Below are positions 364 to 56,279 of a DNA stretch of 64,000 bases, one piece after another. Within the stretch, counting starts at the first letter, position 1; the number at the start of each line of letters is the position of its first letter. Under the pieces are notes generated by a model. That model ran no database searches, was not told the origin of the DNA, and was given only the letters and a program-made list of their open reading frames with translations. Position numbers and translations under genes: made by a program. Source of the DNA: Amycolatopsis sp. EV170708-02-1 (lineage in GTDB: Bacteria; Actinomycetota; Actinomycetes; Mycobacteriales; Pseudonocardiaceae); assembly GCF_022479115.1 (NCBI RefSeq), contig NZ_CP092497.1, forward strand, positions 8,370,001 to 8,434,000, read 5' to 3'.

Positions 364-640
364 ACCTGCGTTTAGCGGGCTAATCGCGCTCCGACGGTGC
401 CGGGACCTGGCGCGCTCAGCGGCCGAGGTGTACCCGATGGGGGCAACGGGCGGGGCGTCTCAGCGGCGGGCCCGGACGCTGCGCCGACCAGCGATCCCAC
501 CTGCGTTTAGCGGGCTAATCGCGTTCCCGAGGCGGACTTGCGTTTCGCGGGCTAATCGCGCTCTGGGGAGCCAGATCGCCTTTAGCGGGCTAAACGCGAT
601 CCGGGGGCCCACCTGCGTTTCGCGGGCTAAACGCGCTCTA
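364..640. repeat. Five tandem copies of the dispersed palindromic repeat
   Basis: Copies lie at about 364-393, 499-527, 536-565, 573-604 and 611-640. Each has the core TTTAG or TTTCG, centre CGGG, then CTAAA or CTAAT, with arms ending in ACCTGCG, GATCGC or CGCGCTC. The four on the right are spaced about 37 bases apart. They occupy the gap between map (3' end) and infA (5' end). No reading frame of note lies in this gap. Confidence 0.9.
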
Positions 641-657
641 CAGGGCGAAGGGGCAGG

Positions 658-1434
658 TCAGGCGTCTTCGGGGGCGGTCAGCACCCAAGGGCCGTCATCG
701 GTGATGGCGACCGTGTGCTCCCAGTGCGAGGCCCGCGAGCCGTCCGCGGTCACGACGGTCCACCCGTCCTCGAGCTCGACGGTCTCCCCGCCGCCACCGG
801 TCAGCATGGGCTCGATCGCGAGCGCCATCCCGGTCTTGAGCCGCGGCCCCTTGCCCGGTTTGCCCAGGTTCGGCAGGAACGGGTCCATATGCATCTGGCG
901 CCCGATCCCGTGACCGCCGTACTCGACGATCATCCCGTACTCGATGCCGTCTTCCCGGCCGGCCTTCTCGGCGGCGGTCTGCACCGCGTGCGAGATATCC
1001 GTGAGCCTGCCACCGGACGACACCGCGGCGATCCCCGCCCACATCGCCGCCTCCGTGGCAGCCGAGAGCGCGAGATCCGCCTTCGACACCTCACCGATCG
1101 CGAGGGTGACCGCGGAGTCGCCGTGCCAGCCGTCGAGGATGGCGCCACAATCCACGGAGATGATGTCGCCGTCGTTCAGGACCTGCGTCTTCGACGGGAT
1201 GCCGTGGACGATCTGCTCGTTCACCGAAGCGCAGATCGACGCCGGGAAGCCGTGGTAGCCCTTGAACGAGGGCACCGCGCCGGCGTCGCGGATCGTCTGC
1301 TCGGCGAGCTCGTCGAGATCGGCCGTGGTCACCCCCGGCTTGGCGATCTCGCGCACCGCGGTGAGGGTGCGCCAGACGACCAATCCGGCGGCCCGCATCG
1401 CCTGGAGCTCGCCAGGGGTCTTGATTTCGATCAT
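658..1434 (-). CDS. map: Type I methionine aminopeptidase
   Basis: This 258-residue enzyme removes the initiator methionine from nascent proteins in the cytoplasm. The five metal ligands of the family are recognisable: Asp in SVDCGA, Asp in WHGDSA, His in GGHGIGR, Glu in AIEPM and Glu in HWEHTVA. The chosen start gives MIEIKTPGELQAM, which aligns with other actinobacterial enzymes. An alternative ATG 16 codons upstream (1482) would overlap the adk stop by ATGA and suggests translational coupling. It follows secY and adk in a tight operon. Its stop lies just beyond a repeat cluster. Confidence 0.95.
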   Translation of the reverse strand: MIEIKTPGELQAMRAAGLVVWRTLTAVREIAKPGVTTADLDELAEQTIRDAGAVPSFKGYHGFPASICASVNEQIVHGIPSKTQVLNDGDIISVDCGAILDGWHGDSAVTLAIGEVSKADLALSAATEAAMWAGIAAVSSGGRLTDISHAVQTAAEKAGREDGIEYGMIVEYGGHGIGRQMHMDPFLPNLGKPGKGPRLKTGMALAIEPMLTGGGGETVELEDGWTVVTADGSRASHWEHTVAITDDGPWVLTAPEDA

Positions 1435-1478
1435 GCGCCCACGACGAAGCCGTTGCAGTACACGCAGTCCTCCGAGAT

Positions 1479-2033
1479 TCACGTGCGGTCGCGCAGCGCT
1501 TCCAGCACGCGGGCGGAGATCTCGTCGACCGAGCCGACGCCGTCGACCGTGACCAGGATGTCCGCGTAGTACTCGAGCAGCGGAGCCGTCTCGGACACGT
1601 AGATCTGCTGGCGACGCCGGATGACCTCTTCGGTGTCGTCCGAGCGGCCGCGGGACAGCAGCCGCTCGACGACGACGTCTTCCGAAACCTGGAGCTGGAT
1701 GACCGCGTTGAGCTTGGTGTCGACCTCGCCGAGGATCTCGCCGAGGACGTCGGCCTGCTTCGTGTTCCGGGGGAACCCGTCGAGCAGGAAACCGACCTTG
1801 GCGTCGGGTTCGGCGAGGCGCTCACGCACCATCTCGTTCGTGACCGAGTCGGGCACGAGTTCGCCGGAGTCCAGGTAGCGCTTGGCTTCCTGGCCCAGCG
1901 GCGTCTGCTCGCCCACGTGGGCGCGGAACAGGTCGCCGGTCGAGATGTGCGGGATCCGGAGCTTCTCCGACAGTGCTACCGCCTGAGTACCTTTGCCCGC
2001 GCCAGGAGGGCCAACGAGAACCAGGCGCGTCAC
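1479..2033 (-). CDS. adk: Adenylate kinase, short form
   Basis: This 184-residue enzyme catalyses the interconversion of ATP plus AMP and two ADP. The P-loop [10 protein letters not shown] is near the N terminus, followed by [10 protein letters not shown] (AMP site) and [12 protein letters not shown]. The short length, lacking a long LID domain, is usual in actinobacteria. The start is GTG, whose last bases overlap the secY stop as GTGA, indicating translational coupling. It is the middle gene of secY-adk-map. Confidence 0.96.
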
Positions 2034-3337
2034 TTCAAGAACCCTTCGTAGTTACGTTGCATCAGCTGGCTTTCGATCTGCTTCACGGTGTCGAGACCGA
2101 CACCGACCATGATCAGCACAGCCGTGCCACCGAACGGGAAGTTCTGGTTGTTCCCGCTGCCGGTGACGGACAGGAAGAAGTTCGGAAGGATCGCGATGAT
2201 GCCCAGGTACAGCGAGCCCGGCAAGGTGATCCGGCCGAGGACGTAGCTGAGGTACTCCGCGGTGGGGCGACCCGGTCGGATACCCGGGATGAAGCCACCG
2301 AACTTCTTCATTTCTTCCGCACGCTCGTCCACGTTGAACGTGATCGTGATGTAGAAGTACGTGAAGAAGATGATCAACGCGAAGTACAGCAGGACGTGCG
2401 CCCAGCTGGACTGGTTGACGATGTAGTTCTGGATGAAGACCTGCCAGCCCGCGTTGCTGTTGGCGTCGCCGACGAGGCGGCTGATCAGGTCCGGCAGGTA
2501 GAGCAGCGATGAGGCGAAGATGACCGGGATGACACCGGCCTGGTTCACCTTGATCGGCAGGTACGTCGAGGTCCCGCCGTACATGCGGCGGCCGATCATG
2601 CGCTTGGCGTACTGCACCGGGATCCGGCGCTGGCCCTGCTCGACGAAGATGACGCTGGCGATGATCACCAGGCCGAACACGCAGATCAGAGCGAAGACGA
2701 CGCCACCCGCGCTGCTGAGGATGTTGCCACCCTCGATCGGGATCCGGGCCGCGATGTTCAGGAAGATGAGGACGGACATGCCGTTGCCGACGCCGCGCTC
2801 GGTGATCAGCTCACCCAGCCACATCATGACGGCGGTACCGGCGGTCATCGTGATGACGATGATGGCCAGCGTGTAGACGCTGTTGTCCGGGATGATCGCG
2901 GTGTCGCACTGCGGGAAGAGCTGCTTGCGGTCGGCGAGTGCCACCACACCGGTCGCCTGCAGGACCGCGAGGGCGATCGTCAGGTACCGGGTGTACTGGG
3001 TCAGCTTGCCCTGGCCGGCCTGGCCTTCCTTCTTCAGTTCCTCGAATCGCGGGATGACCACGGTGAGGAGCTGGACGATGATGCTCGCCGTGATGTACGG
3101 CATGATGCCGGTCGAGAACAGCGACAGCTGCAGCAGTGCACCGCCACTGAACAGGTTCAGCAGCTGATAGACGCCCTCCTGCGACCCGGTCTCCGTACAT
3201 TGCTGCACGGCGGAATACGAGATGCCCGGGGCCGGAATGGTGGCACCGATTCGGTAGACCGCGACGATGGCTAGCGTGAACAGGATCTTCTTACGTAGAT
3301 CCGGCGTCGCTAGAGCCGAGCGGAAGGCGCTGAGCAC
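2030..3337 (-). CDS. secY: Preprotein translocase subunit SecY
   Basis: SecY forms the protein-conducting channel of the Sec translocon in the cytoplasmic membrane. The 435-residue product has about ten hydrophobic segments and starts with [16 protein letters not shown]. Signature stretches include IGATIPAPG in the first membrane segment and the [18 protein letters not shown] cytoplasmic loop that contacts ribosomes. I chose the GTG at 3335-3337 because AGGAGG stands eight bases upstream; a longer frame upstream has no such site. In most actinobacteria secY directly follows rplO, but here two other genes and several repeats separate them. Confidence 0.96.
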
Positions 3338-3612
3338 GCGGGGAACCTCCTCGGCGTCGTCGGCTGTCTTACCGACGATCGGCTTGGCCGGCCTGGGGCC
3401 GGCGGGAACACACAGCTTTCTGGCACAAGCCAGGAACGCTTCGGGGCACACTCGTCCCGAAGCGTGCCGCCGACTCTAACAGCTTCACAGGGCGTGTCCG
3501 CAGTGCGTGTGGGTTTTCCGGACGAAGGTTGGTCCGCGGGGTTGATCGACTTGTGCTTCTCGCTCCGGAACCTTGACAGATCGCCTTACCTGTCCCAGCT
3601 TTCCGGGCCCTG
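3338..3612 (-). other. Leader region of the secY operon
   Basis: About 275 bases between secY and the repeat at 3613. No coding frame is convincing. It should hold the promoter of secY-adk-map, because the gene upstream (a LysE-type exporter) is unrelated and repeat-bounded. I see no clear paired -35/-10 elements. Confidence 0.4.
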
Positions 3613-3641
3613 CCGGATCGCGTTCAGCCCGCTAAACGCAC
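3613..3641. repeat. Single copy of the dispersed palindromic repeat
   Basis: Left arm GGATCGCGTTCAG, centre CCCG, right arm CTAAACGCA. One base of the core differs from the usual TTTAG. It lies six bases beyond the stop of the LysE-type gene. Confidence 0.85.
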
Positions 3642-3646
3642 TGTGA

Positions 3647-4279
3647 TCAGGAGCTCGAAGTGGCCAAGGCGCCGGCCATGCCGAGGAGCACCACACCGGT
3701 GCCGCGGTCCACGTTGCGAGTCGCCCGGCGGGACAGCCGGAGCGTCTTCACGAGCGCGCCCGCGCCGATGTAGGTCGCACCCGCGACGAACTCGGCTAGC
3801 AGGTAGACGGCGCCGAGGATCGCGATCTGGGCGGAAAAGGAGCCGTGAGCTGCGTCGATGAACTGAGGCACGAACGCGGTGAAGATGAGGATCGCCTTCG
3901 GATTCGTGATCGCGACGACGAATTCCTTCCTCGCGATCCGTAGCGCCGGCACGGATTCGGCGACCGGCGGCGACTGGACCAGCGTGGTGCGCCCGGCGCG
4001 GAACGTCGACCACAGCAGACGTCCACCGAGCCAGAGCAGGTAGGCGACACCCGCCCACTTGATCACCGTGAGTGCAAGCTCGGATGCCGCGAGGAGCTGT
4101 CCGAGACCTGCCGCGACAGCCGCGATGAGCACCGTGAATGCAGCCAATCGGCCTAACAGCCCCGCTAGCCCCTTCCAGGCCCCTTGCGTCATTCCGTGGT
4201 GCAGGCCGAGCAGATTGTTCGCCCCTGGCGTAAACGCCACGAGCACCGCCGCTCCGAAAAAGACCGCCACCCAAGTCAT
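3647..4279 (-). CDS. LysE/RhtB-family amino-acid exporter
   Basis: The 210-residue protein starts MTWVAVFFGAAVLVAFTPGAN; the FTPGANN stretch at the end of the first membrane helix is typical of LysE/RhtB translocators. Five to six hydrophobic segments are visible. Members export amino acids or related small molecules; the substrate cannot be told here. AGGAGG stands seven bases before the ATG. It is inserted, with its neighbour, between rplO and secY and is bounded on both sides by palindromic repeats, so it is probably transcribed alone. Confidence 0.85.
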   Translation of the reverse strand: MTWVAVFFGAAVLVAFTPGANNLLGLHHGMTQGAWKGLAGLLGRLAAFTVLIAAVAAGLGQLLAASELALTVIKWAGVAYLLWLGGRLLWSTFRAGRTTLVQSPPVAESVPALRIARKEFVVAITNPKAILIFTAFVPQFIDAAHGSFSAQIAILGAVYLLAEFVAGATYIGAGALVKTLRLSRRATRNVDRGTGVVLLGMAGALATSSS

Positions 4280-4313
4280 CGGCCACCTCCTACCCCACCG
4301 TATCGGCGACCGC

Positions 4314-4342
4314 GAGCGCGTTTAGCGGGCTAATCGCGCTCC
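4314..4342. repeat. Dispersed palindromic repeat that supplies a stop codon
   Basis: Arms GAGCGCGTTTAG and CTAATCGCGCTC around centre CGGG; both outer arms are of the same type and nearly perfectly paired. It overlaps the 3' end of the next gene: the TAG stop at 4330-4332 and its last codons lie inside the repeat. Confidence 0.9.
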
Positions 4343-5082
4343 TTCGCACCGGGATCCGGCGGCGGCGCGAAGGCTGAATAGTCCGGGGGCTCCGGCGGGA
4401 GCACGGTGATGGAGATGCCGTCCTTCGGTGTGGGCATTTCCGCGAGGGCCGAGTCTCCGCTCACTGGGACAGCGTCGTCCTGGACGCGGTGGCTCATGAC
4501 CGCCGCACCCACCGCGGCGACGACCGCAGCGAGCAGTGCCCACATCCCCGCTTCGAGTGTCAGGACCACCTTGACGTCATCTCCCAGCTGACGCCCGGCG
4601 CTCAGCGTGGCGATGGTGCTGACGACACCGGTTAGGAACACCGCCGCGATGGTGGTGAGCCACCTGTCCATCGCGCCCGGGCGTCCGGCGGCTCGCGCGC
4701 TGACGATCGCTGCGGCCAGCAAGAGAGCCGCGGCGACCAGGAGCGGGATACCGAGCGGAGACGACGAAGTGGTGAAAGCAGGTTCGTTGGTCTGTAACGC
4801 CGTCGTGTCCCACGCGCTTTGCACGAACACCATCAGGAGCTGTTCGCTGGTGTCGAAGGCGAACCGATGCTCGGTCTTGAAGAGCGGGAAGAAGCAGCCT
4901 ACGAGGGCCAGGACTAGAGCCAGCGATGCCAATCCCGCGGCGACCAGTCTGCGGGGCTCGAGCCGGCCAGGCCGCGCCGGCTCGCCTACGGGATCCATGG
5001 GGCCGGAAACCGATACGACCATCGGCGGAGCGTCCGGCTGCTGCTGAACGGGCTGCGGATCCTGCCCTGGAGGTATGGCCAC
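4330..5082 (-). CDS. Hypothetical four-helix membrane protein
   Basis: I do not recognise a family. The 250-residue product has a Pro/Gln-rich cytoplasmic N terminus, a first membrane segment (LVAAGLASLALVLALVG), an extracytoplasmic loop of about 40 residues, three further membrane segments and a Pro-rich acidic tail ending KERD. I chose the GTG at 5080-5082 because GGAAGGA stands seven bases upstream; a start 12 codons earlier lacks a site. The stop codon and last residues come from a palindromic repeat, so the original C terminus may have been altered. Confidence 0.7.
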   Translation of the reverse strand: MAIPPGQDPQPVQQQPDAPPMVVSVSGPMDPVGEPARPGRLEPRRLVAAGLASLALVLALVGCFFPLFKTEHRFAFDTSEQLLMVFVQSAWDTTALQTNEPAFTTSSSPLGIPLLVAAALLLAAAIVSARAAGRPGAMDRWLTTIAAVFLTGVVSTIATLSAGRQLGDDVKVVLTLEAGMWALLAAVVAAVGAAVMSHRVQDDAVPVSGDSALAEMPTPKDGISITVLPPEPPDYSAFAPPPDPGAKERD

Positions 5083-5138
5083 CTCACGATCCTTCCAGCT
5101 CGGACACCCCTCCGCCACGCCCGCGACCGCTGCGGCCG

Positions 5139-5337
5139 ACTTGCGTTTAGCCCCCTAATCGCGATCCGGGCGGCGGGCATCTGGGCGACCGTCAGAGCGC
5201 GTTTAGCCCGCGAAACGCAGGTCGGTGCCGGGGCGGCGGCCCACGACCCAGATCGCGATTAGGGGGCTAAACGCAGGTCGGCGGGAGGGGCGGGCGAAAC
5301 GGGCCAGATCGCGTTTAGCCCGCGAAACGCAGGTCGG
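5139..5337. repeat. Four copies of the dispersed palindromic repeat
   Basis: Copies lie at about 5139-5169, 5195-5224, 5250-5281 and 5306-5337, spaced 55 to 57 bases apart. Centres differ (CCCC, CCCG, GGGG, CCCG) and two copies have CGAAA in place of CTAAA. They fill the gap between the rplO terminator and the membrane-protein gene. No coding frame is convincing here. Confidence 0.9.
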
Positions 5338-5358
5338 AGGCGCCGGAGGGAGCGCAAG

Positions 5359-5395
5359 CGAAAGGCCCGCCTGGCGGAGCCTGGCGGGCCTTTCG
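5359..5395 (-). terminator. Hairpin terminator after rplO
   Basis: A perfect 13-base-pair stem, CGAAAGGCCCGCC with GGCGGGCCTTTCG, encloses an 11-base loop, about 20 bases beyond the rplO stop. It closes the S10-spc ribosomal transcription unit. Confidence 0.8.
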
Positions 5396-5415
5396 GTGAA
5401 GCGAGCGAAGAAAGC

Positions 5416-5862
5416 TCAGAGCGTGGTGGCGGAGCCACCGGCAGCGGAGAGCTTCTCCTTGGCGGAGCCGGAGAAAGCGTCGGCGGTGACGTCCAGCTTG
5501 ACGCCGTTCACGTCGCCGTTGCCGAGCACCTTCACGAGCTTGCCCTTGCGGACGAGACCGTTCGCGACGAGCTCCTCGGCGCCGACCTTGCCACCCTCCG
5601 GGAAGACGCGGGCGATGTCGCCCACGTTCACCGGCTGGTACTCGGTACGGAACCGGTTCTTGAAGCCGCGAAGCTTCGGGAGCCGCATGTGGATGGGCAT
5701 CTGCCCACCCTCGAAACCGGCGGGCACGTTCTTCCGGGCCTTGGTGCCCTTGGTACCGCGACCGGCGGTCTTGCCCTTCGAGCCCTCACCACGGCCGACG
5801 CGGATCTTGTCGCGCTTCGCGCCCGGAGCCGGACGAAGGTGGTGGATCTTGATGGCAGTCAT
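5416..5862 (-). CDS. rplO: 50S ribosomal protein L15
   Basis: Bacterial L15 (148 residues) is an assembly protein of the large subunit that contacts 23S rRNA. The N terminus [16 protein letters not shown] and the glycine/basic-rich stretch [13 protein letters not shown] are diagnostic. It overlaps the rpmD stop by four bases (ATGA). Here it is the last gene of the spc operon, followed at once by a strong hairpin terminator; secY, its usual neighbour, lies about 2 kb further on. Confidence 0.97.
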
Positions 5863-6044: not shown

Positions 6045-6045
6045 G

Positions 6046-6690: not shown

Positions 6691-6724
6691 CAGGCTTTCC
6701 TTCCATTCACGAGCATCTGCTGCA

Positions 6725-7123: not shown

Positions 7124-7125
7124 GA

Positions 7126-7665: not shown

Positions 7666-7681
7666 GTCTGTGCCCCCTTCC

Positions 7682-21032: not shown

Positions 21033-21067
21033 CCCGGATCGCGTTTAGCGGGCTAAACGCGATCCGG
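21033..21067. repeat. Fully symmetric dispersed palindromic repeat
   Basis: Arms GGATCGCGTTTAG and CTAAACGCGATCC around centre CGGG: a perfect dyad. It lies between two codirectional plus-strand genes, nine bases after a stop, so it is one of the few copies possibly inside a transcription unit. Confidence 0.92.
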
Positions 21068-22723: not shown

Positions 22724-23344
22724 GTGACCGCGTGGATCATCGCCATCGTCGCGGTGGCGTTGCCGATCGTGCTGGCCGTCTGGTGGATCCTCGCCGGGGC
22801 GGCGAAGAAACGCGGGCTGGCCACGTTGGCGCGGGAACGGGGCTGGGACTTCTACAGCGGTGCCCGGCTCGGTGCCCCCGGCGGGCGGCACGAGCAGCCG
22901 GCGACGGGCCGCGCGCCCGCCCCGCTGCGGCGGGCCGGCGAGTCGATCGACCAGGCGGTGGTGGGCACGCACCGGGGGAAGGCCTTCGGCGTCTACCGGT
23001 ATCACCAGCCGGGCGCCGGGTTCCGTCAGGACGGCACCCGCGAGTCCGGTTCGCTGCGGACGGTCGTGCACGTCGAGGTCGGCGCGGCCATGCCGGATTG
23101 CACGCTCTCGATCAGCGGGTCCGAAGTGGACTGCTCCAATCCCGCGTTCGTCCCGCGCCCCGAGGTCCGGGACTGGCTGACGGCGAACGCGGGCCGGTGC
23201 CGCGAGTTCCACACGTCCGGGCGGACGGTGGCGGTGGTGCCGAAGGTCCTGCCGAGCGGGAAGCAGCTCCTGCGCACCTTGGACTACCTGGCCGACGTCG
23301 CCGACCGGGCCCCGCTCACCGCCACCCCGCCGGATCGCGTTTAG
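22724..23344 (+). CDS. Membrane-anchored protein of unknown function
   Basis: The 206-residue product starts at a GTG four bases after the preceding stop. One membrane helix (residues 3-24, AWIIAIVAVALPIVLAVWWI) is followed by a soluble domain beginning GLATLARERGWDFYSG and containing VVGTHRGKAFGVYRYH. I do not recognise the family. Position as last gene of the YbaB-EspC-WXG cassette suggests a partner or immunity role, unproven. The last residues, DRV, and the TAG stop are supplied by a palindromic repeat. Confidence 0.65.
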   Translation: MTAWIIAIVAVALPIVLAVWWILAGAAKKRGLATLARERGWDFYSGARLGAPGGRHEQPATGRAPAPLRRAGESIDQAVVGTHRGKAFGVYRYHQPGAGFRQDGTRESGSLRTVVHVEVGAAMPDCTLSISGSEVDCSNPAFVPRPEVRDWLTANAGRCREFHTSGRTVAVVPKVLPSGKQLLRTLDYLADVADRAPLTATPPDRV

Positions 23345-23409
23345 CCCGCTAAACGCAGGTCAGGCGTCCCGCCGCCCGGATCGCGTTTCGCGGGCTAAAC
23401 GCGATCCGG
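23332..23409. repeat. Two palindromic repeats forming the ends of two convergent genes
   Basis: Copies at 23332-23362 (GGATCGCGTTTAG, CCCG, CTAAACGCAGGTC) and 23375-23409 (GGATCGCGTTTCG, CGGG, CTAAACGCGATCC). The left copy contains the stop of the plus-strand gene and the right one the stop of the minus-strand gene. Both proteins therefore end in DRV. Confidence 0.92.
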
Positions 23410-23932: not shown

Positions 23933-23966
23933 CCGGATCGCGTTTAGCCCGCTAAACGCAGGTCAG
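23933..23966. repeat. Dispersed palindromic repeat touching a stop codon
   Basis: GGATCGCGTTTAG, CCCG, CTAAACGCAGGTC. The TGA of the MmpS-like gene begins in its last bases (23963-23965). Confidence 0.9.
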
Positions 23967-28699: not shown

Positions 28700-29308
28700 T
28701 CTTTCTCCCTGTTTTCGCTACCGAAGCGCCAGACAATCGGCACACCTCTCCCCTATTTCGCGCAGGCTTCACCGCACGGATCGAAGGGGAAAGCAATCAA
28801 CCGCCGGTTCGCCGAGGGAACCGTTGCGGCACAGCGGAAAACGTCAGCGCACAAGGAACGGACGCATCCGTTCGGATACGCGAATCCGCCTGCGTCGCGA
28901 CAAACCCGGAATAGGTCAGGAATCCATACACAGCGCGCTTGCTTGCTGCCGCAAGTCAACGTGCCGGCGCCACACCAAGGCGACTGGGGATTGCATGGGC
29001 GAAATACTCGTGTGAACCCGCCGGAGTGTCAATCTCGTGATCAAAGAATGGGACATGCCACGGCAGGGTGAATTTCCCACGATGCGGATGGGCCATTGGA
29101 CCGAATGGGTGGCGGTTTTCCGAGCAGTGGGAATTAGACCACTTGGCGGCGCTACCGCAGGTCACAACGGACCAGTAACCCGCCAGCGACCCTCGCGGCA
29201 GCGTTATGAGTTCGTTACTCAATCCCGGGAACTCCGGTGCCGCGATGCCTTCGGACACGAAGTCGCCATGGGAGCTTTCGCGCCGCGCCGACCTGCGCTT
29301 CCCCGCCC
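28700..29308. other. Long non-coding region upstream of the SBP56-like operon
   Basis: About 600 bases with no convincing reading frame, visibly less GC-rich than its neighbours. It should hold the promoter of the SBP56-like operon. A lone half-site (GACCTGCG near 29290) of the palindromic repeat is visible at the right end. No terminator was recognised. Confidence 0.5.
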
Positions 29309-29376
29309 CGGATCGCGTTTAGGGGGCGAAACGCAGGTCGGCGCCGGATCGCGATTAGGGGGCTAAACGCAGGTCG
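29309..29376. repeat. Two adjacent palindromic repeats, one encoding a C terminus
   Basis: Copies at 29309-29341 (centre GGGG, with GCGAAAC in place of GCTAAAC) and 29345-29376 (GATCGCGATTAG, GGGG, CTAAACGCAGGTC), four bases apart. Read on the minus strand, the second encodes the last residues DLRLAP and the TAA stop of the serine hydrolase gene. Confidence 0.92.
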
Positions 29377-30491
29377 GAGGCGGGGCCGCAGAGGGCCTGG
29401 TGCTTGAAGGTCGCCAGGGCGTCGTCGATGAGGTGCGTGGTCCCTTCGGCATCCGGCTTGCGCCATCGCACGACGTTCATCGCCGCGGAGAACTGCCGCC
29501 CGCCGTCGGCACTGGACCACGCCATCGTCATCGCTCCCCAGACCGTGCCGTCGTGCCCCCAGAAGACGCCGTGCCCCGGGATCTCGGTGCTGTACAGGCC
29601 GAGCCCGTAGTCGATCAGCCGCCCGTCCTGCGCGATGACCGGGACCAGCCGCTGCATCTCCGCCAGCGACGACGGGCTGACGATCTCCCCGCTCAGCAGT
29701 TTGCCGTAGAAGCGGTTGAGATCCTCGACGGTCGAGACCAGCCCGGCCCCGGCCATCACCCAGGACATGTCGTAGACGCTGTAGTCGCGCGGCGGATCGA
29801 TCGCGCCGAACAGCGCCTCGTACATCCGCGAGTGCGGCTCCTCGATCCGCGGACCGGCGGGAAAGCCGGTGTTCGCGAGACCCGCCGGTTCGATGATGGC
29901 GCGCGAGATGTGCTCCTCCATCGGGACGCCGGTCAAGTGCTCCAGCAGTTCGCCCAGGAGCAGGTAGTTCGTGTTGGAGTAGACCCCGGGGGTGCTGCCC
30001 GGCTCGCCGGTGGCGGGCGCGCCGACACCGATCGCGATCAGCTCGGCCGGGCGGAACTCCTGAAAGCGGTTGTCGTCGAGGCTTTCGGGGGCGAGCTTCT
30101 GGAGCGAAGGGAACGCGTAGGGCAGGTATTCGGCGAGGCCACTCGTGTGGTTGAGCAGCATGCGGATCGTGATCGCCCGGCCCCGTTCACCGGGGACCAG
30201 CCGCGGCAGGAAGTCGCCGATCGGCGCGTCGAGGCCGAGCCGCCCCGCCTCGACCTGACGCAGAACCGCGGCCGAGACGAAGGTCTTGGTGACACTGCCG
30301 ACGCGCTGCCGCATCCCGGCCTCGACGGGGCGACCGGTTTCGAGGTCGGCGACTCCCGCGGCGCCGCGCCAGCTCCGCGCACCCGCCCGCACCTCGGCGA
30401 ACACCCCGGGTACGCCCGCCCGATGGACATCGTCCAAAGCGGACCGCAGGTTCTTGGTGGCCGAGTTCTCTTCTGTCACAAGGGATTCCAT
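29355..30491 (-). CDS. Serine hydrolase of the class C beta-lactamase/DD-peptidase family
   Basis: The 378-residue product has the catalytic SxxK at 66-69 (SVTK), YSN at 171-173, and a GHDG motif near the C terminus in place of KTG, as in many beta-lactamase-related esterases and peptidases. No signal peptide is seen, so it is probably cytoplasmic. I chose the ATG at 30489-30491 because AAAGG lies nine bases upstream; two earlier starts have poor spacing. The last six residues (DLRLAP) and the stop derive from a palindromic repeat. Confidence 0.8.
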   Translation of the reverse strand: MESLVTEENSATKNLRSALDDVHRAGVPGVFAEVRAGARSWRGAAGVADLETGRPVEAGMRQRVGSVTKTFVSAAVLRQVEAGRLGLDAPIGDFLPRLVPGERGRAITIRMLLNHTSGLAEYLPYAFPSLQKLAPESLDDNRFQEFRPAELIAIGVGAPATGEPGSTPGVYSNTNYLLLGELLEHLTGVPMEEHISRAIIEPAGLANTGFPAGPRIEEPHSRMYEALFGAIDPPRDYSVYDMSWVMAGAGLVSTVEDLNRFYGKLLSGEIVSPSSLAEMQRLVPVIAQDGRLIDYGLGLYSTEIPGHGVFWGHDGTVWGAMTMAWSSADGGRQFSAAMNVVRWRKPDAEGTTHLIDDALATFKHQALCGPASDLRLAP

Positions 30492-30576
30492 ATCGGCCAT
30501 CCTTTCGACCGGCAGTCCCGGGATCGCCCGCCATCCGTCGCGCATCCAGGCGGATACCGCACCGATCGTCGGCGGC

Positions 30577-30609
30577 CGGATCGCGATTAGGGGGCTAAAC
30601 GCAGGTCGG
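30577..30609. repeat. Dispersed palindromic repeat
   Basis: GATCGCGATTAG, GGGG, CTAAACGCAGGTC. It lies between the serine hydrolase start and the terminator of the surface-protein gene. Confidence 0.9.
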
Positions 30610-40564: not shown

Positions 40565-40689
40565 CGGCGGGGTTGCCGGGCGGGTCACCGGGTCGGGCCA
40601 GGGGGCCGGCGAGGCGCTCCGGGCGAACTTGTCCGGTGTGACCGTTGTGGCCGGTGGGCCTTCTGGTGCGGCGCACAGGCAGGGCGACG

Positions 40690-40721
40690 CACTTGCGTTT
40701 AGCGGGCTAAACGCGATCCGG
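40690..40721. repeat. Dispersed palindromic repeat next to a start codon
   Basis: ACTTGCGTTTAG, CGGG, CTAAACGCGATCC. It ends 23 bases before the GTG at 40745, so it overlaps where that gene's promoter or leader must lie. Confidence 0.9.
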
Positions 40722-40744: not shown

Positions 40745-41938
40745 GTGAACGAAACGTGGGAGCAGGACGCCAGTGCCGAGATGCCCCCGGTCTTCTTGAG
40801 GCCGGAAGCCGAGCTGCGGCTGGCCGCGGAGCGGAGCCCCCTCCTCCGCGAGGTCCGCGGCTACGTCGCCGGGTCGGGCGACAGCGACCCGCTGATCCCG
40901 CGGTGGGCGGAGGTGTCCGGGCTGGTCCGCGTCGTCGACGGCAAGCACGTGCCCGTCGAGGAGAACGCGACGCTCGTCGACGACCCTCTCCGGCTCTGGC
41001 AGCGGCTGTACTCGACGATCGGCGAGGCCGAGCCTCTGCCACTCGGACTGGTCGCGTCGATCTCACTCACGCTCTACCGGTCAGGTCCGGTCGCTGTGCC
41101 GGTTGAGCTCCTTTTCGAGGCCGTCGAACTCGGGCAGGCACCGGACGAGTCGATGCGGTACGCGACAAGCGTCGCGCTGGACCTGTTGGAACGGCTCGGC
41201 GCGCTCGAGAAGGGCACCGCGGACCCGGCCGGGCTCGCGCTGATCGCCGATATCGCCGGGAAACCCGATCCCTCCCCGTTCCTCCTCAGCCTCACCCCGA
41301 TCGCCGTCTGGGCGATCAACAGGGAGCTCCGAGAGGCCGGAATGGACGCACCGGTCATCGGCGAAGCCGCGGGCGAGAGTCTCGGCGAGCTGAGCCCCCG
41401 GCTCGTCCACTCCGCACCGGAGATCATCGACGCGGAGCTGAAGGCCTGGGTCCGGCACCGATCACCCTCAGACGCGGCAGCGGAGGCGAGCGAGTTCCTT
41501 CGCACGGCGCGGCTTCCCGAAGAACGACTGTTCGCCTTGATCGCGCTCGGGGAGACCGGCGAGATCGGCCTCGAGACCGCCGTGGGCGTCCGAGCCGAAG
41601 GCGGTCTGGTCGGCGCGGCCGCCGCGATGTGGCTGGCCGAACGTGGAGCGGTCGACCGGGAAACGGTCACCCGCGACGAGGTCGTCGTCGGGATGGCCGA
41701 CCATTACGCGGCGATGCACGCGCTCGGCGCGTTCGTCCATCAGCTCGCCGACATGGACGACCGCTTCGACATCGTGGAGCTGTTGACGTCCTCCGGCCAC
41801 CCGGACCGGCTCGAACTCCTCAACGTCGTCGGCGCGGACCACCCGGACCCGAAGATGGCCAAGAAGGCGCGGACGGCGAGTTTCAAGCTCCGGTCGAGCG
41901 GCGGCGGGCGACCCCCTGGTCAGCGCGCCGACGCGTGA
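40745..41938 (+). CDS. Hypothetical alpha-helical protein
   Basis: The 397-residue product starts at a GTG and is almost all helix, rich in Ala, Leu and Glu, with no membrane segment and no signal. Several stretches look like HEAT/TPR-type helix pairs (MRYATSVALDLLERLGALE, AAAMWLAERGAVDR). I do not recognise the family. It is alone on the plus strand between rpoB and the mce locus, framed by palindromic repeats. Confidence 0.7.
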   Translation: MNETWEQDASAEMPPVFLRPEAELRLAAERSPLLREVRGYVAGSGDSDPLIPRWAEVSGLVRVVDGKHVPVEENATLVDDPLRLWQRLYSTIGEAEPLPLGLVASISLTLYRSGPVAVPVELLFEAVELGQAPDESMRYATSVALDLLERLGALEKGTADPAGLALIADIAGKPDPSPFLLSLTPIAVWAINRELREAGMDAPVIGEAAGESLGELSPRLVHSAPEIIDAELKAWVRHRSPSDAAAEASEFLRTARLPEERLFALIALGETGEIGLETAVGVRAEGGLVGAAAAMWLAERGAVDRETVTRDEVVVGMADHYAAMHALGAFVHQLADMDDRFDIVELLTSSGHPDRLELLNVVGADHPDPKMAKKARTASFKLRSSGGGRPPGQRADA

Positions 41939-41963
41939 CGATTAGCCCGCTAAACGCAGGTCA
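41937..41963. repeat. Palindromic repeat with truncated left arm
   Basis: GACGATTAG, CCCG, CTAAACGCAGGTC. It starts at the stop codon of the preceding gene (TGA at 41936-41938). Confidence 0.8.
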
Positions 41964-41983
41964 GCGGGGCGGGAGCCGGAAAG

Positions 41984-42034: not shown

Positions 42035-42056
42035 AACGGGACGCGCGCCGCGTCGT

Positions 42057-42089
42057 CGGATCGCGTTTAGCGGGCTAAACGCGATCCGG
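42057..42089. repeat. Fully symmetric dispersed palindromic repeat
   Basis: GGATCGCGTTTAG, CGGG, CTAAACGCGATCC, beside the 3' end of the last mce-operon gene. Confidence 0.92.
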
Positions 42090-51503: not shown

Positions 51504-51506
51504 GCG

Positions 51507-52301
51507 TCAGTCCAGCTTTCCGGGCACGATCTGCAGGTAGATCAGCGTGATCACGAAGTTCACCACGAACAGCATGAGGAACGTGATGACGACCGACTGG
51601 TTCACCGCGTCGCCGACGCCCTTCGGGCCGCCGGACGGGTTCAGTCCCCGGTACGAGGCGACGACCGCGGCGATGAAGCCGAAGATCAGCGCCTTCAGCT
51701 CGCCGACCCAGAGGTCCGGCAGCTGGGCCAGCGCGGAGAAGCTCGCCAGGTACGCGCCCGGCGTCCCGCCCTGGAGGACGACGTTGAAGAAGTAACCGCC
51801 GAGCACGCCGATGACGCTGACCATGCCGTTCAGCAGGAGCGCCACCAGCATCATCGCGAGCACGCGCGGCACGATCAGCCGCTGCACCGCGGAGACGCCG
51901 AGCACCTCCATGGCGTCGATCTCTTCCCGGATGGTCCGCGCGCCGATGTCCGCGCAGACCGCGCTACCGCCGGCGCCCGCGACCAGCAGCGCCGTGACCA
52001 GCGGGCTGGCCTGCTGCACGGTGGCGAGCACCGACCCGGCGCCCGTGTAGGACTGGGCGCCGAGCTGGCGGGCGAGCGATCCGAACTGCAGCGAGATGAC
52101 TGCGCCGAACGGGATCGCGACGAGCGCCGTCGGCAGGATCGTGACGCTCGCGATGAACCAGGCCTGCTGGATGAACTCCCGCAGCTGGAACGGGCGCTGG
52201 AAAATGCCACGAACGATGTCGAGGCCGAGAGCGAACAGGTTCCCGGTCTCGCGCACCATGCCGATCCCGGGAATCTTCGCCGATGAAGCGGAAGAGCTCA
52301 C
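51507..52301 (-). CDS. yrbEA: YrbEA-type permease of the Mce transporter
   Basis: 264 residues, beginning at a GTG that overlaps the end of the ATPase gene. Five to six membrane segments, with ARTIREEIDAMEVLGVSAVQ, the MlaE coupling loop that contacts the ATPase. Confidence 0.9.
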   Translation of the reverse strand: MSSSASSAKIPGIGMVRETGNLFALGLDIVRGIFQRPFQLREFIQQAWFIASVTILPTALVAIPFGAVISLQFGSLARQLGAQSYTGAGSVLATVQQASPLVTALLVAGAGGSAVCADIGARTIREEIDAMEVLGVSAVQRLIVPRVLAMMLVALLLNGMVSVIGVLGGYFFNVVLQGGTPGAYLASFSALAQLPDLWVGELKALIFGFIAAVVASYRGLNPSGGPKGVGDAVNQSVVITFLMLFVVNFVITLIYLQIVPGKLD

Positions 52302-53467
52302 GCGCCACCTGACCCCGGATCTTGTGGCCGCAGGCGGTGGTTGCCCGCTCTCCCGGGGTGCGGGATGTGGGCGACCTGGTCGTCGGGCAGCTGGCCCTGG
52401 TGGTGGTTCGGGATGGAGCTCTCGGCGGGCGCCGACCGGTGGCCGGCGGCCGCGAGGCGCTGCGGGCGGACGCCGTAGCGCTGCTGTTCCTCCGGGGAGA
52501 GCGACTCGATGATGCTCTGCTGCGCCTCCGGCGGGAGACCGTGCAGGATCTGCATGACGCGGTCCTTGCGGCGGACAGCGCCCATCCGGGTCGGCACGCC
52601 GGGCGTCGGCTGCATCTGCGGCGGCACCCCGCTGACGTCCTCGACACCGCCCGCGTGGTGGCCGGCCTCGAACATCGCGCGCTCCGCGGCGAGCTGGGCC
52701 GAGTCCTTCTCCTCGCTCATCCCGATGGGGCCGTCCATCTTGCCGTTGAGGAACTGTTTGACGACCGGCTCCTCGCTGGTCAGCAGCACCTCGCGCGGGC
52801 CGAACATGACCAGTTCCTTGCGGAAGAGCATGCCCAGGTTGTCCGGGACGGTGCGGGCGAGGTTGATGTTGTGCGTGACGATCAGGAACGTCGCGTCGAT
52901 CTGCGCGTTGACGTCCAGGAAGAGCTGGGAGATGTAGGTGGTGCGGACCGGGTCGAGACCGGAGTCCGGCTCGTCGACCAGGATGATCTGCGGGTCAAGC
53001 ACCAGCGCGCGGGCGAGACCGGCGCGTTTGCGCATACCGCCGGAGATCTCGCCGGGCAGCTTCTTGTCGGCGCCGTTGAGACCGGTCATCTCGAGCTTCT
53101 CGAGCACGATCCGGCGGACCTCGGTCTCCGACTTCTTCGTGTGCTCCCGCAGGGGGAAGGCCACGTTGTCGTAGAGGTTCATCGAGCCGAACAGCGCGCC
53201 GTCCTGGAAAAGGACGCCGAAGAGCTTGCGCACCTCGTAGAGCTGGTGTTCGGAGCACGTCACGATGTCGACGCCGTTGATCATGCAGCGGCCCTTGTCG
53301 GGCTTGAGCAGACCGATCATCGACTTCAAGAAGACGGACTTACCGGTTCCGGACGGTCCGAGCATCGCCGAGACCTCGCCCGGAGGCAGGGTCAGCGTGA
53401 CGTCCCGCCAGATGGCCTGCTTACCGAAGGACTTGGAAAGACCTTCGATGACCACCTCGGCACCCAT
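52298..53467 (-). CDS. mkl: Mce transporter ATPase, MceG/Mkl type
   Basis: 389 residues from the ATG at 53465-53467 (GGAGG upstream). Walker A is GPSGTGKSV, signature ISGGMRKRAGLARAL, Walker B IILVDEPDSGLDP, and H-loop VTHN. The C-terminal extension (about 100 residues) is typical of MceG-like proteins. It heads the yrbE-mce operon, so this transporter has its own ATPase. In M. tuberculosis, mkl is not linked to mce genes but lies between rplL and rpoB. Confidence 0.9.
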   Translation of the reverse strand: MGAEVVIEGLSKSFGKQAIWRDVTLTLPPGEVSAMLGPSGTGKSVFLKSMIGLLKPDKGRCMINGVDIVTCSEHQLYEVRKLFGVLFQDGALFGSMNLYDNVAFPLREHTKKSETEVRRIVLEKLEMTGLNGADKKLPGEISGGMRKRAGLARALVLDPQIILVDEPDSGLDPVRTTYISQLFLDVNAQIDATFLIVTHNINLARTVPDNLGMLFRKELVMFGPREVLLTSEEPVVKQFLNGKMDGPIGMSEEKDSAQLAAERAMFEAGHHAGGVEDVSGVPPQMQPTPGVPTRMGAVRRKDRVMQILHGLPPEAQQSIIESLSPEEQQRYGVRPQRLAAAGHRSAPAESSIPNHHQGQLPDDQVAHIPHPGRAGNHRLRPQDPGSGGA

Positions 53468-53726
53468 CGCACCTCCAGGAGCTGTTCCGCGTCGTCGCGC
53501 ACTGCCTTCCCGTGCCACTGGCCCGAGAGGACGCATGCGTTCGCGCAGCGATACCCGCGTCAACCAGGTGCAACGAGCTGAGTGCGAACAGGTTACTCAC
53601 CAGTTTTCTTTTCTGGCCAGACCCGCGGGTAACTTTTCGCGCAGCCCGCCGCCTGCCCGTGCACCGCTTGCAGCACCGTAGTGCACGTCACTCCCGCGCG
53701 CAGATCCACGACCTGCCCCTGCCCAG

Positions 53727-53873
53727 GCCGGATCGCGATTAGGGGGCTAAACGCAGGTCAGGGCCCCCGCCGCCCTCCGCCCGCACAGATCGCCTTTCGC
53801 GGGCTAAACGCGATCCGGCGCCCTGATGCTTAGCGTGGCTACGCGTCGCGATCAGGGGCTAAACGCAGGTCGG
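53727..53873. repeat. Three palindromic repeats between mkl and rplL
   Basis: Copies at 53727-53760 (centre GGGG), 53786-53819 (GATCGCCTTTCG, CGGG, CTAAACGCGATCC) and a damaged one at 53846-53873 (GCGATCAGGGGCTAAACGCA). A possible remnant lies at 53826-53845. The remaining part of this gap (53468-53726) should hold the promoter of the mce operon, not identified. Confidence 0.88.
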
Positions 53874-53886
53874 GGCGTCGACAGCA

Positions 53887-53920
53887 AAGGGGCGGGCATC
53901 CGTGTGGATGCCCGCCCCTT
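53887..53920 (-). terminator. Terminator after rplL
   Basis: A perfect 15-base-pair stem, AAGGGGCGGGCATCC with GGATGCCCGCCCCTT, with a four-base loop, about 36 bases past the rplL stop. Confidence 0.85.
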
Positions 53921-53955
53921 CGACGGTGCTGCGGTAGGCGCTGACGCGCCCGAGA

Positions 53956-54342
53956 TCACTTGATGGCGATCTTGGCGCCCGCGGCCTCGAGCTTCTCCTT
54001 GGCGGCCTCGGCGGCCTCCTTGTCGACCTTCTCCAGGAGGGCCTTGGGAGCGGCCTCGACCAGCTCCTTGGCCTCCTTCAGGCCCAGACCGGAGACGACC
54101 TCACGGACGACCTTGATGACCTGGATCTTCTTGTCACCGGCGGACTCGAGGACGACGTCGAACTCGTCCTGCTCCTCGGCGGCCGCGGCGGGGGCGGCAC
54201 CCGGGGCGGCGGCGACGACGGCAGCCGGGGCGGCCGCGGTCACGTCGAAGGTGGTCTCGAATTCCTTCACGAACTCGGACAGCTCAAGAAGGGTGAGCTC
54301 CTTGAAGGCGTCGATCAGCTCGGCGGTGCTCAGCTTCGCCAT
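53956..54342 (-). CDS. rplL: 50S ribosomal protein L7/L12
   Basis: 128 residues, forming the stalk that recruits GTPase factors. N-terminal dimerisation helix ([18 protein letters not shown]), Ala-rich hinge ([16 protein letters not shown]) and the C-terminal domain [20 protein letters not shown]. 48 bases after rplJ. Confidence 0.97.
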
Positions 54343-54390
54343 GGTGGCTTTCCTCTCTGAAACGAACTAAAAGTTCGGGGGTGGGGGTGT

Positions 54391-54942
54391 TCAGCTCTCG
54401 GCGGGTGCTTCGGCTGCTTCGGTACCGGCGTTGCGCTGCTTCTCCTCCAGCGCGGCAGCCAGGCGGGCGACCTGGGACGCCGGCGCCTGGAACAGCGCGG
54501 CGGCCTGGGACAGCTTCGCCTTGAACGCGCCCGCCGCCTTGGCGAGCAGGACCTCACGGCTGTCGAGATCGGCGATCTGGTTGATCTCGTCCACGGACAG
54601 CGTCTTGCCGTCCATGTAGCCGCCCTTGATCACAAGCGCGTTGTTGTCCTTCGCGAAGTCGCGAAGCGCCTTCGCGGCGTCAACAGCTTCACCTTCGACG
54701 AAGGCGATCGCGGTCGGGCCGACGAACAGGTCCTCGAGACCCTCGATTCCGGCGTCCGTGGCGGCACGCTGGACAAGGGTGTTCTTCGCGACCCGGTACT
54801 TGGCATTGGTGCCGAGAGCGCGGCGCAGCTGGGACAGCTGGGACACGGAGAGGCCGGTGTACTGGGTAACGACTGTGGCCGAGCTGGTGCGGAAGCGCTC
54901 CGCGATCTCGGCGACGGCCGCCTCCTTGTCGGGCTTCGCCAT
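54391..54942 (-). CDS. rplJ: 50S ribosomal protein L10
   Basis: 183 residues; anchors L7/L12 to the ribosome. It begins [17 protein letters not shown] and has [16 protein letters not shown] and [15 protein letters not shown] structured leader upstream suggests autoregulation by L10. Confidence 0.97.
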
Positions 54943-54959
54943 GGTCGCCTCCTCTCTTG

Positions 54960-55150
54960 GCTAGTGGTCCACTGGCCTTGAGAGCCCTGAAACGACGAAA
55001 CGCCCCAGCGCAGACAGGCGCGGGGCGTCAGGGCACACGACGGAGTGCGTCGCGAGCGAGCCTCGTTCCTCCTGCGCGGGTCGCCCGCCCTAGCGGGGCC
55101 TTCGTTCTCCAGGTCAGATGACCGGGAGAAGACCAGCGGTCTTCGGTAGA
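54960..55150 (-). ncRNA. Probable L10 leader RNA
   Basis: The leader contains AGACCGCTGGTC near 55130, the usual beginning of the L10-leader fold, GCGCAGGAGGAACG in the middle, and a strong hairpin (54995-55031, ACGCCCCGCGC with its complement) near the end. L10 binds such leaders to limit rplJ-rplL synthesis. Boundaries are approximate. Confidence 0.55.
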
Positions 55151-55199
55151 ACCTTGACAAGAATACGCGAGCCTCTCCGGCCCTTCGCACGGGCCCCCC

Positions 55200-55231
55200 A
55201 GATCGCGTTTAGCGGGCTAAACGCGACCGGC
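55200..55231. repeat. Palindromic repeat in a divergent gap
   Basis: GATCGCGTTTAG, CGGG, CTAAACGCGACC. It lies upstream of both rplJ (minus) and the plus-strand gene at 55269. Confidence 0.9.
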
Positions 55232-55268
55232 GGAGTGCGCCGACGGCCTCGCGAGGCATCATGGTGAC

Positions 55269-56114
55269 GTGGCGGAGCAGCGTGATGACGGAAAGCCGGG
55301 CAGCGAGCCCGGCACGGACATCGAGCCCAAGGCGGGGGGTCAGCCCGCGCCCCGGCTGGATGAGGAGCAACTGCGCCAGTTCCAGCAGTTTCAGCAGTTC
55401 CAGGACTATCTGAAGTTCACCGAGGCACAGCAGCAGGGCCTCGTGCCGTCACAGCCCACGCAGCCCGTGACCCAGCACTACGGAGGACAGCCTCCGGCGC
55501 CTCCGGGACCGCCGCCCGGGCAACTCGTGCCGGCTCCCCGGCCGCGCATGCCGCGCTGGCTGCGGCGTCTGGGCGGGAAACTCCTCGCCTGGATCATCGT
55601 GATCTTGCTGATCTGCATCGGCGCGACCATCGCCTACCGGCAGATCTTCCCCAGCGACGCCGGGGAGGACACGGCGACGTTCGTGCAGGGTGGCGGCGGC
55701 AAGCACCACACCAACCGAGTGCTCGCAAGTAGCCCGTGGGAGGCCGTGCGGGCCATCTACGACACGATCGGCAAGCCGTACCCACGGGACGTCCGGATCG
55801 AAACGGTATGCCTTGCGATGACCGAACAAGCGCAGGCCCAGTTCGCCCGCGACCTCGGCTATCCGGACTGCGCGACCGCCGTCCCGGCGCTGAACGCCAA
55901 GGTCACCGACATCACTCCGTACATCTACGCGGTGCGCCCGATGTCGAGCGTGGTCCCGCGGCAGAACCTGACCATCCACTCGTGCTGGTACACCATCCGC
56001 GGTGGCCCCATGCTGGGCAGCTTCACCCTGCAGGAAGTCGAGATGGGCCAGTGGCTGATCACCGGACACGCGAACTCTCCCGACCCCTGCCCCGCGCCGC
56101 CCGCCGGCAACTGA
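55269..56114 (+). CDS. Membrane-anchored protein with Gln-rich N terminus
   Basis: 281 residues from a GTG. A Gln/Phe repeat (QFQQFQQFQ at about 37-45) and a Pro/Gln-rich cytoplasmic part lead to one membrane helix (104-122, KLLAWIIVILLICIGATIA), then an extracytoplasmic domain with paired cysteines (VCLAMTEQAQ, YPDCATAV, HSCWYTI, PDPCPAP). I do not recognise the family. It stands alone, framed by palindromic repeats. Confidence 0.7.
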   Translation: MAEQRDDGKPGSEPGTDIEPKAGGQPAPRLDEEQLRQFQQFQQFQDYLKFTEAQQQGLVPSQPTQPVTQHYGGQPPAPPGPPPGQLVPAPRPRMPRWLRRLGGKLLAWIIVILLICIGATIAYRQIFPSDAGEDTATFVQGGGGKHHTNRVLASSPWEAVRAIYDTIGKPYPRDVRIETVCLAMTEQAQAQFARDLGYPDCATAVPALNAKVTDITPYIYAVRPMSSVVPRQNLTIHSCWYTIRGGPMLGSFTLQEVEMGQWLITGHANSPDPCPAPPAGN

Positions 56115-56131
56115 CCTGCGCGTCTTCACCC

Positions 56132-56279
56132 TCGGATCGCGTTTAGGGGGCTAAACGCAGGTCGGCCGCCGGATCGCGTTTAGCCTGCGAAAGGCGACCC
56201 GGCCCGCCGGGATCGCGATTAGCCCGCGAAACGCAGGTGCGAGCGCCAGGTCGCGTTTAGCCCGCGAAACGCAGGTCGC
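56132..56279. repeat. Four tandem palindromic repeats between convergent genes
   Basis: Copies at about 56132-56164, 56170-56202, 56207-56239 and 56246-56279, spaced 37 to 39 bases. Centres are GGGG, CCTG, CCCG and CCCG; three have GCGAAA in place of GCTAAA. An extra half-site ACCTGCG starts near 56114. They fill the gap between the stops of the two genes. Confidence 0.92.

What the first reader, a model, noticed from the sequence alone, without database searches (positions are those of the whole stretch)
364..56279. A family of about 30 short palindromic repeats marks the gaps between transcription units
I count 30 recognisable copies plus one degenerate copy. The core is TTTAG, a four-base centre (CGGG, CCCG, GGGG and rare others), then CTAAA; the arms end in GATCGCG or ACCTGCG. 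Copies occur in about 15 intergenic gaps, in codirectional, convergent and divergent settings, and in none of the operon interiors (S10-spc, str, rpoBC, mce). The centre varies while the arms are kept, as in a dyad for a protein or a DNA hairpin. There is no T tract, so a plain terminator role does not fit. It could be a REP-like miniature mobile element, a nucleoid-protein site or a boundary element.
Basis: seen in the sequence. Interest (0 to 1): 0.85.

Follow-up and report, generated by a model that had tools for sequence, protein, structure and literature searches.

The report
Address sites marking one chromosome domain
Short mirror-image DNA sites crowd into one stretch of the chromosome of Amycolatopsis and some related bacteria, and in a few relatives the same stretch carries a whole set with a different spelling, which suggests that an unidentified protein reads them as an address label for that part of the chromosome.

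Summary
The repeats are real: 29 copies plus one degenerate copy in the window. They are not a genome-wide family. Of 81 near-exact cores in the 9.66-Mb genome, 72 lie in one 450-kb stretch, 0.63-0.98 Mb from dnaA. The syntenic stretch around rpoA/rpsI carries clusters in the other genera read; occupied gaps recur more than chance, and copies in arrays are spaced in steps of about one helical turn. Four Amycolatopsis genomes without the exact TTTAGC 18-mer carry another core (CTTTTGC-SS-GCAAAAG) mainly in that stretch; in the one read, it uses gaps occupied here too, and about half of its sites lie inside genes, without insertions in the conserved proteins. The window's genome has no Y1/RAYT transposase, the arms do not covary here or in G014, 1 of 106 copies has a T run, and a terminator-like hairpin after rpsI is kept beside the sites. 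REP elements and plain terminators fit poorly. Best reading: dyad sites for an unidentified dimeric protein that marks one chromosomal domain, working like matS/MatP or RBM/RefZ with unrelated sequence and place. Protein and function are not shown, and some genomes list sites outside the domain.

The parts
361..394 (.). site, core TTTAGCGGGCTAAT
496..641 (.). array of 4 sites, centres 37/38/37 bp apart, infA|map gap (gene names by eye)
   Evidence: the gap is also occupied in G014, G102, G139, G093
3613..3646 (.). site, core TTCAGCCCGCTAAA
4311..4344 (.). site, core TTTAGCGGGCTAAT
5136..5337 (.). array of 4 sites, centres exactly 56 bp apart
21034..21067 (.). site with near-perfect 34-bp palindrome
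23330..23409 (.). pair of sites 46 bp apart
23933..23966 (.). site; the ortholog in G014 has the ATTAGGGGGC variant
29308..29377 (.). pair of sites 36 bp apart
30576..30609 (.). site, core ATTAGGGGGCTAAA
40530..40563 (.). site
40688..40721 (.). site
41931..41964 (.). site, one arm degenerate
42056..42089 (.). site
53728..53761 (.). site
53785..53818 (.). site, 57 bp from the previous one
53840..53873 (.). degenerate copy (core one base short)
   Evidence: far below the score of the others
55198..55231 (.). site in a divergent gap
   Evidence: gap occupied also in G102 and G093, not in G139
56132..56279 (.). array of 4 sites, centres 37/39/38 bp apart, convergent gap

Best explanation
Each copy is a duplex-DNA operator of about 26-34 bp: two inverted half-sites (GCG-TTTAGC) around a GG/CC step, bound by a dimer of a sequence-specific protein that is not yet identified. 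Shown: about 100 sites are concentrated in one stretch of about 350 kb around rpoA/rpsI on one replication arm (shorter in other genera); occupied gaps recur across genera; arrays are phased; a second spelling of the whole set exists in relatives. Inferred: that a protein binds, and that it marks or folds the domain (bridging, anchoring, or a signal to division or segregation), as MatP does on matS or RefZ on its RBMs. Phased arrays would let neighbouring dimers cooperate. The preference for gene ends would come from avoiding promoters.
For: Concentration: of 81 cores within one mismatch in the genome, 72 lie in 8.10-8.55 Mb and 1 in another 0.8 Mb examined; a second palindrome family of this genome is dispersed. 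Synteny: clusters of G014, G102, G139, G093 and G119 map to the same genes. Gaps: G000 and G014 share 30 (31 and 30 occupied, of 163 comparable); for G102, G139, G093, G119 4 of 5, 3 of 3, 5 of 6 and 3 of 4 of their occupied comparable gaps are occupied in G000. Second spelling: CTTTTGCGGGCAAAAG in 4 of 80 Amycolatopsis genomes, none of them among the 23 with the exact TTTAGC 18-mer; all 19 copies in G027 lie in 174 kb that includes rpoA; in 60 kb of G003, by eye, all 7 gaps with an intergenic site correspond to gaps occupied in G000. Genic sites of G003 in conserved proteins show no indel at the site. Third codon positions in coding cores, G003 against G054: 0 of 15 differ against 22 of 99 in flanks, for the 3 sites not used to fetch the G054 locus. 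Phasing: 31 of 41 spacings in G000 are 36-38, 46-48 or 56-57 bp; 30 of 38 in other genera are 31-32, 42-43 or 52-53 bp. No strand bias (26/23).
Against: No binding protein was found. Whole copies are gained or lost by indels between close relatives, and variants swap as blocks of about 8 bp, which could also be gene conversion. Of the comparable gaps occupied in G000, only 4 of 8, 3 of 7, 5 of 7 and 3 of 3 are occupied in the other genera. Three of 7 strictly genic G000 sites sit where the protein is longer than most orthologs. Mean divergence of the core is not below that of the flanks. Arm pairing is mildly positive at some positions in other genera. Only 31 of 297 family genomes carry 3 or more TTTAGC cores, so the system is dispensable. 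Sites outside the domain exist: in G000 a 4-copy array at 2.655 Mb and a site at 8.591 Mb, in G139 two at 3.851 Mb; G050 lists four at 6.89-7.02 Mb and G045 lists places on three contigs, not resolved. In G014 the rplJL block lies apart from the cluster and still carries its sites. The phase of the spacing differs between clades, and for G000 a period of 9.5-10 bp fits better than 10.5.
Confidence: 0.55

Rival explanations
1. A REP-like, non-autonomous palindromic element that spreads locally (short-range copying or gene conversion) and so stays near its ancestral place; the TTTTGC spelling would be another subfamily.
For: Near-identical 34-bp units in arrays, copy-number changes by whole units, mostly intergenic placement, other palindrome families in the genome.
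Against: No Y1/RAYT gene in the genome, while the control search rang in 5 of 14 genomes including E. coli; no arm covariation in G000 or G014; 11 of 21 G003 sites are genic, without insertion in the conserved proteins; corresponding gaps are occupied although the core differs.
Confidence: 0.21
2. Operators of a transcription factor whose regulon happens to be clustered around the ribosomal and rpo genes.
For: Dyad with positions that never differ between G000 and G014; some divergent gaps are occupied, such as those read by eye as eccC/eccD and glmS.
Against: Density is lowest in divergent gaps (0.79 per kb against 3.91 convergent); 7 of 93 intergenic copies lie within 60 bp of a start against 40 within 60 bp of a stop.
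Confidence: 0.12
3. Transcription terminators or RNA hairpins without a T tract.
For: Enrichment at convergent gaps and gene ends; two G003 copies have 20-21-bp perfect arms.
Against: In the rpsI|glmM gap a separate GC-rich, terminator-like hairpin follows the rpsI stop in all nine genomes printed, seven with sites and two without, and in G049; TTTT within 12 nt in 1 of 106 copies; does not explain concentration in one region; genic copies.
Confidence: 0.07
4. Sites for a site-specific recombinase, the asymmetric GG/CC step being the crossover.
For: The middle dinucleotide is GG or CC in 103 of 106 G000 copies, and it flips between some orthologs.
Against: Gene order across the sites is mostly collinear between genera in the sampled ortholog pairs. 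A recombinase gene was not looked for.
Confidence: 0.05

Closest known systems
matS/MatP, Ter macrodomain of E. coli
   Same: Short palindromic sites confined to one chromosomal domain; motif found in silico before the protein
   Different: matS is GTGACRNYGTCAC, 23 copies in Ter (PMC3116907, passages); here a different sequence, more copies, a domain away from the terminus, phased arrays, protein unknown
RBM/RefZ of Bacillus
   Same: Nearly palindromic sites whose position relative to oriC is conserved across a genus (PMC6657595, abstract and passages)
   Different: Five RBMs, on both arms and near oriC; here about 100 sites on one arm; no TetR-type binder shown
ram/RacA, NBS/Noc, parS/ParB (recalled)
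   Same: Regional sets of dyad sites read by a chromosome-handling protein
   Different: Different sequence; exact parS cores are at 9.116 Mb, outside the cluster
REP/BIME repeats with RAYT (features recalled)
   Same: Intergenic palindromes, often in arrays
   Different: No RAYT, regional, genic sites without insertion in G003, no arm covariation in G000/G014

Membership tests
REP/RAYT | RAYT (Y1_Tnp) gene in the genome | tested here: not met
   PF01797: 0 matches in G000, control rings in 5 of 14 genomes; other genomes not searched
REP/RAYT | dispersed over the genome | tested here: not met
   72 of 81 cores in 450 kb
REP/RAYT | hairpin with compensatory changes | tested here: not met
   G000 and G014: highest z 1.0, many negative; other genera show some positive positions, up to z 2.7
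matS/MatP | GTGACRNYGTCAC consensus | tested here: not met
   consensus of 29 copies compared by eye with the motif in PMC3116907
matS/MatP | confined to one domain | tested here: met
   largely; a few outliers
matS/MatP | domain is the terminus | tested here: not met
   0.63-0.98 Mb from dnaA in a 9.66-Mb genome
matS/MatP | MatP protein | not tested
RBM/RefZ | RefZ (TetR-type) binder | not tested
   no search made
ParB/parS | parS consensus in the cluster | tested here: not met
   GTTTCACGTGAAAC (recalled): 2 exact places in the genome, both at 9.116 Mb
intrinsic terminator | T tract after the hairpin | tested here: not met
   TTTT within 12 nt in 1 of 106
described RNA family | Rfam match | tested here: not met
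   only a tRNA in the window at gathering scores

The most novel reading that the evidence does not exclude
A chromosome-domain address system in Actinobacteria that is not at ori or ter: one protein reads tens to about 100 helically phased dyads in a conserved domain around the ribosomal genes, and the whole set of addresses is rewritten in step when the protein's specificity changes.
Probability: 0.45. Interest if true: 0.9.

Novelty: new variant of a known kind. Interest (0 to 1): 0.77.

Why it matters
Few bacterial proteins are known that bind one chromosomal domain only, and a 2011 review (PMC3116907, passages seen) expected more to be found. A set of sites with an on/off presence pattern among relatives, a conserved position and two alternative spellings gives a direct handle: bait for a pull-down, a genome comparison for the co-occurring gene, and a natural change of specificity. 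It would give antibiotic-producing Actinobacteria a macrodomain-type system to study.

Tried and rejected
Origin-centred cluster: rejected, dnaA at 9.112 Mb and parS cores at 9.116 Mb. RNA or cruciform hairpin, suggested by perfect arms in single copies and written so in notebook entry 3: not borne out for G000/G014 by the shuffle test. The same entry says 'always clustered'; the capped lists do not show that for all genomes. Link to DUF222-HNH genes: 5 of 29 have related TTTAGTCG palindromes upstream, none of the 29 lies in the cluster. Array at 2.655 Mb as a pointer to the protein gene: neighbours are AlgX-like and DUF445, no lead. Proteins near the cluster centre: read by eye from their first 50-60 residues only; a DeoR-like and a LuxR-like protein are there, neither tested; none was seen to track the sites. 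Third spelling: three genomes without sites (G067, G009, G049) show no comparable 6-bp dyad in 40, 20 and 20 kb, but 20 kb of G154, which does have weak sites, also shows none, so the two 20-kb nulls are weak. Phage source: 2 viral contigs with one core each, not followed. Literature: listings show no title or abstract start on these sites; most subscription papers are not in that library. The covariance model kept only 2 pairs and was not used. In one search a fifth gene pair gave no aligned core and was left out.
Full report
Observation. The window holds 29 copies of an imperfect 34-bp palindrome, consensus CCGACCTGCG-TTTAGC-GG-GCTAAA-CGCGATCCGG, and one degenerate copy. In a PWM scan of the surrounding 450 kb all 106 hits above 10 bits score above 20; the best score in five shuffles was 13.6. 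Gene names below are read by eye from the sequences, except where a family call is cited.

Concentration in one region. The whole genome (9,660,387 bp, one contig; window = 8,370,001-8,434,000) has 70 exact TTTAG-N4-CTAAA cores against 0 for the reversed pattern and 81 GTTTAGC-NN-GCTAAAC cores within one mismatch; 72 of the 81 lie in 8.10-8.55 Mb. The 106 PWM copies span 8,132,555-8,480,054. Control stretches (0.06-0.46, 4.2-4.4, 8.0-8.1 and 8.55-8.65 Mb) have 0, 1, 1 and 1 hits above 10 bits, of which only 8,591,234 is a full site. Elsewhere there is a 4-copy array at 2.655 Mb, and related but different palindromes (centres TCCT, TCGG, TCGA). Another family in the same genome, GCGAAAGTGGCTTTCGC, is spread over the chromosome but absent between 8,100,309 and 8,479,935, so palindromes as such are not regional here. 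dnaA is at 9.112 Mb and the two exact parS cores at 9.116 Mb.

Relatives. TTTAGCGGGCTAAACGCG occurs in 23 of 80 genomes of the genus and 24 of 297 of the family sample; the looser core occurs in 38 of 297, 31 of them with 3 or more copies and 7 with one, while the reversed control reaches 3 in two genomes. Named matches are Amycolatopsis of the A. orientalis group and Saccharomonospora piscinae, whose contig has the length of G102:C4. In one search, G102 has 9 sites in 89 kb, G093 6 sites in 68 kb, and G139 5 sites in 55 kb plus one elsewhere (two by PWM). The fetched clusters of G014, G102, G139, G093 and G119 are syntenic with parts of 8.16-8.49 Mb of G000. rpoA was located in 20 genomes; in G050, G020, G063, G028, G096 and G133 listed sites lie on its contig and near it. 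The lists are capped. They also show sites elsewhere: G050 at 6.89-7.02 Mb, G020 and G014 one or two places far off, G028, G096 and G133 on other contigs, and G045, G007, G013 and G038 on several contigs of draft assemblies.

Position. Among comparable syntenic gaps G000 and G014 share 30 occupied gaps (31 in G000, 30 in G014, of 163). For G102, G139, G093 and G119, 4 of 5, 3 of 3, 5 of 6 and 3 of 4 of their occupied gaps are also occupied in G000 (hypergeometric p 0.0013, 0.0038, 0.0002, 0.018). The other way round, 4 of 8, 3 of 7, 5 of 7 and 3 of 3 of the G000 gaps are occupied in them. The rpsI|glmM gap is occupied in all of these.

A second spelling. G003, which lacks the TTTAGC 18-mer, carries palindromes with the core CTTTTGC-SS-GCAAAAG in the same region. 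Genus-wide the 16-mer with a GG centre occurs in 4 of 80 genomes: G003 17, G027 19, G054 4, G058 3; none of the 23 genomes with the TTTAGC 18-mer has it. All 19 in G027 lie in 174 kb with rpoA inside; 13 of 17 in G003 lie in 153 kb with rpoA inside, two lie at 6.885 Mb and two at 7.50 Mb; in G054 three lie together and one 0.38 Mb away. In the 60 kb of G003 read, 21 sites within one mismatch occur, against 0 in 1.25 Mb of G000 and 0 in 40 kb of G067. Ten are intergenic, in 7 gaps, all of which by eye correspond to gaps occupied in G000 (rpsI|glmM, both sides of the gene next to glmS, after rplQ, and others); the eccC|eccD gap is occupied in G000 but not in G003. G054 has sites at rpsI|glmM, and G054 and G058 after rplQ and in the Hsp70-like gene. 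In G067, G009 and G049, which have neither spelling, no comparable dyad was seen in 40, 20 and 20 kb; the two short stretches are weak tests.

Sites inside genes. In G003 11 of 21 sites are genic. In conserved proteins (an NAD(P)HX-type enzyme with two sites, a kinase-like protein, the C-terminal part of an Hsp70-like protein) there is no indel at the site; in variable proteins indels occur, and 3 of 7 strictly genic G000 sites lie where the G000 protein is longer than most orthologs. Between G003 and G054, third positions in coding cores differ at 0 of 15 in the three sites not used to fetch the G054 locus, against 22 of 99 in flanks; with the sites used for fetching it is 0 of 25 against 36 of 164. 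Two of the flank stretches overlap and numbers are small. Against G058, one core of the Hsp70-like gene does differ at a third position.

Form. The arms show no pairing beyond the shared consensus in G000 and G014; in other genera some positions are positive. The centre is GG or CC in 103 of 106 copies. Between G000 and G014 some core positions never differ while others differ more than the flanks, over 59 aligned intergenic copies; averaged over the core, divergence is not below the flanks (0.084 against 0.087-0.099), so constraint shows only position by position. Variants swap as sets, for example GGGCTAAA to CCCCTAAT. Spacing up to 80 bp: 31 of 41 in G000 are 36-38, 46-48 or 56-57 bp; 30 of 38 in other genera (five values added by hand) are 31-32, 42-43 or 52-53 bp. 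Rayleigh p at 10.5 bp, one value per distinct spacing per array, is about 4e-6 and 2e-7; periods of 9.5-10 bp fit as well or better, and arrays share history, so these are rough. In 9 of 11 G000 arrays of three or more, neighbours differ in orientation, which argues against simple tandem duplication.

Not terminators, not REP. Copies avoid genes (13 of 106 against 84.5% coding) and favour convergent gaps (3.91 per kb against 1.72 codirectional and 0.79 divergent); 1 of 106 has a nearby TTTT. After the rpsI stop codon a GC-rich hairpin is kept in all nine genomes printed (with sites G000, G014, G003, G102, G139, G093, G119; without G067, G009), and the sites lie downstream of it; in G049 the hairpin is seen. 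That it is the terminator is inference. There is no Y1 transposase in the window's genome.

Mechanism. The pattern (one domain, recurring places, no strand bias, phased arrays, genic sites without insertion, a second spelling of the whole set) is what a single sequence-specific protein acting on duplex DNA over a chromosome domain would give. The review on macrodomain proteins (PMC3116907, abstract and passages seen) and the RefZ paper (PMC6657595, abstract and passages seen) describe such systems in E. coli and Bacillus. What the domain does here (anchoring, folding, division timing) is inference, and the protein was not found.

Noticed in passing
G000 genome-wide, e.g. L254-L273 (0.06-0.46 Mb): Second palindrome family GCGAAAGTGGCTTTCGC, often as inverted pairs 30 bp apart, dispersed over the chromosome (79 + 73 matches within one mismatch) but absent from 8,100,309-8,479,935.
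   Followed up: partly
L232, L235, L236, L238, L241: A subfamily of DUF222-HNH genes (5 of 29) carries related palindromes of the type TTTAGTCGRCTAA upstream.
   Followed up: partly
L208, L209, L210, L214, L215: Dispersed palindromes with centre TCCT (TTTAGTCCTCTAAA), mostly in convergent gaps.
   Followed up: no
L205 9903-10254 (2.655 Mb): Isolated array of 4 full sites between an AlgX-like and a DUF445 gene, far from the main cluster.
   Followed up: partly
L299 and L313 (G003 6.885 Mb, G054 9.873 Mb): An oxidoreductase-like gene a few hundred kb from the cluster carries coding TTTTGC sites at matching positions in both genomes.
   Followed up: partly
L278, L286, L287, L289, L291; L263: Long inverted repeats with centre GGTTAGAACC, and GTGAAGGCC-type palindromes, occur outside the cluster.
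   Followed up: no
L331, L332: Two viral contigs hold one exact CGTTTAGCSSGCTAAACG core each.
   Followed up: no
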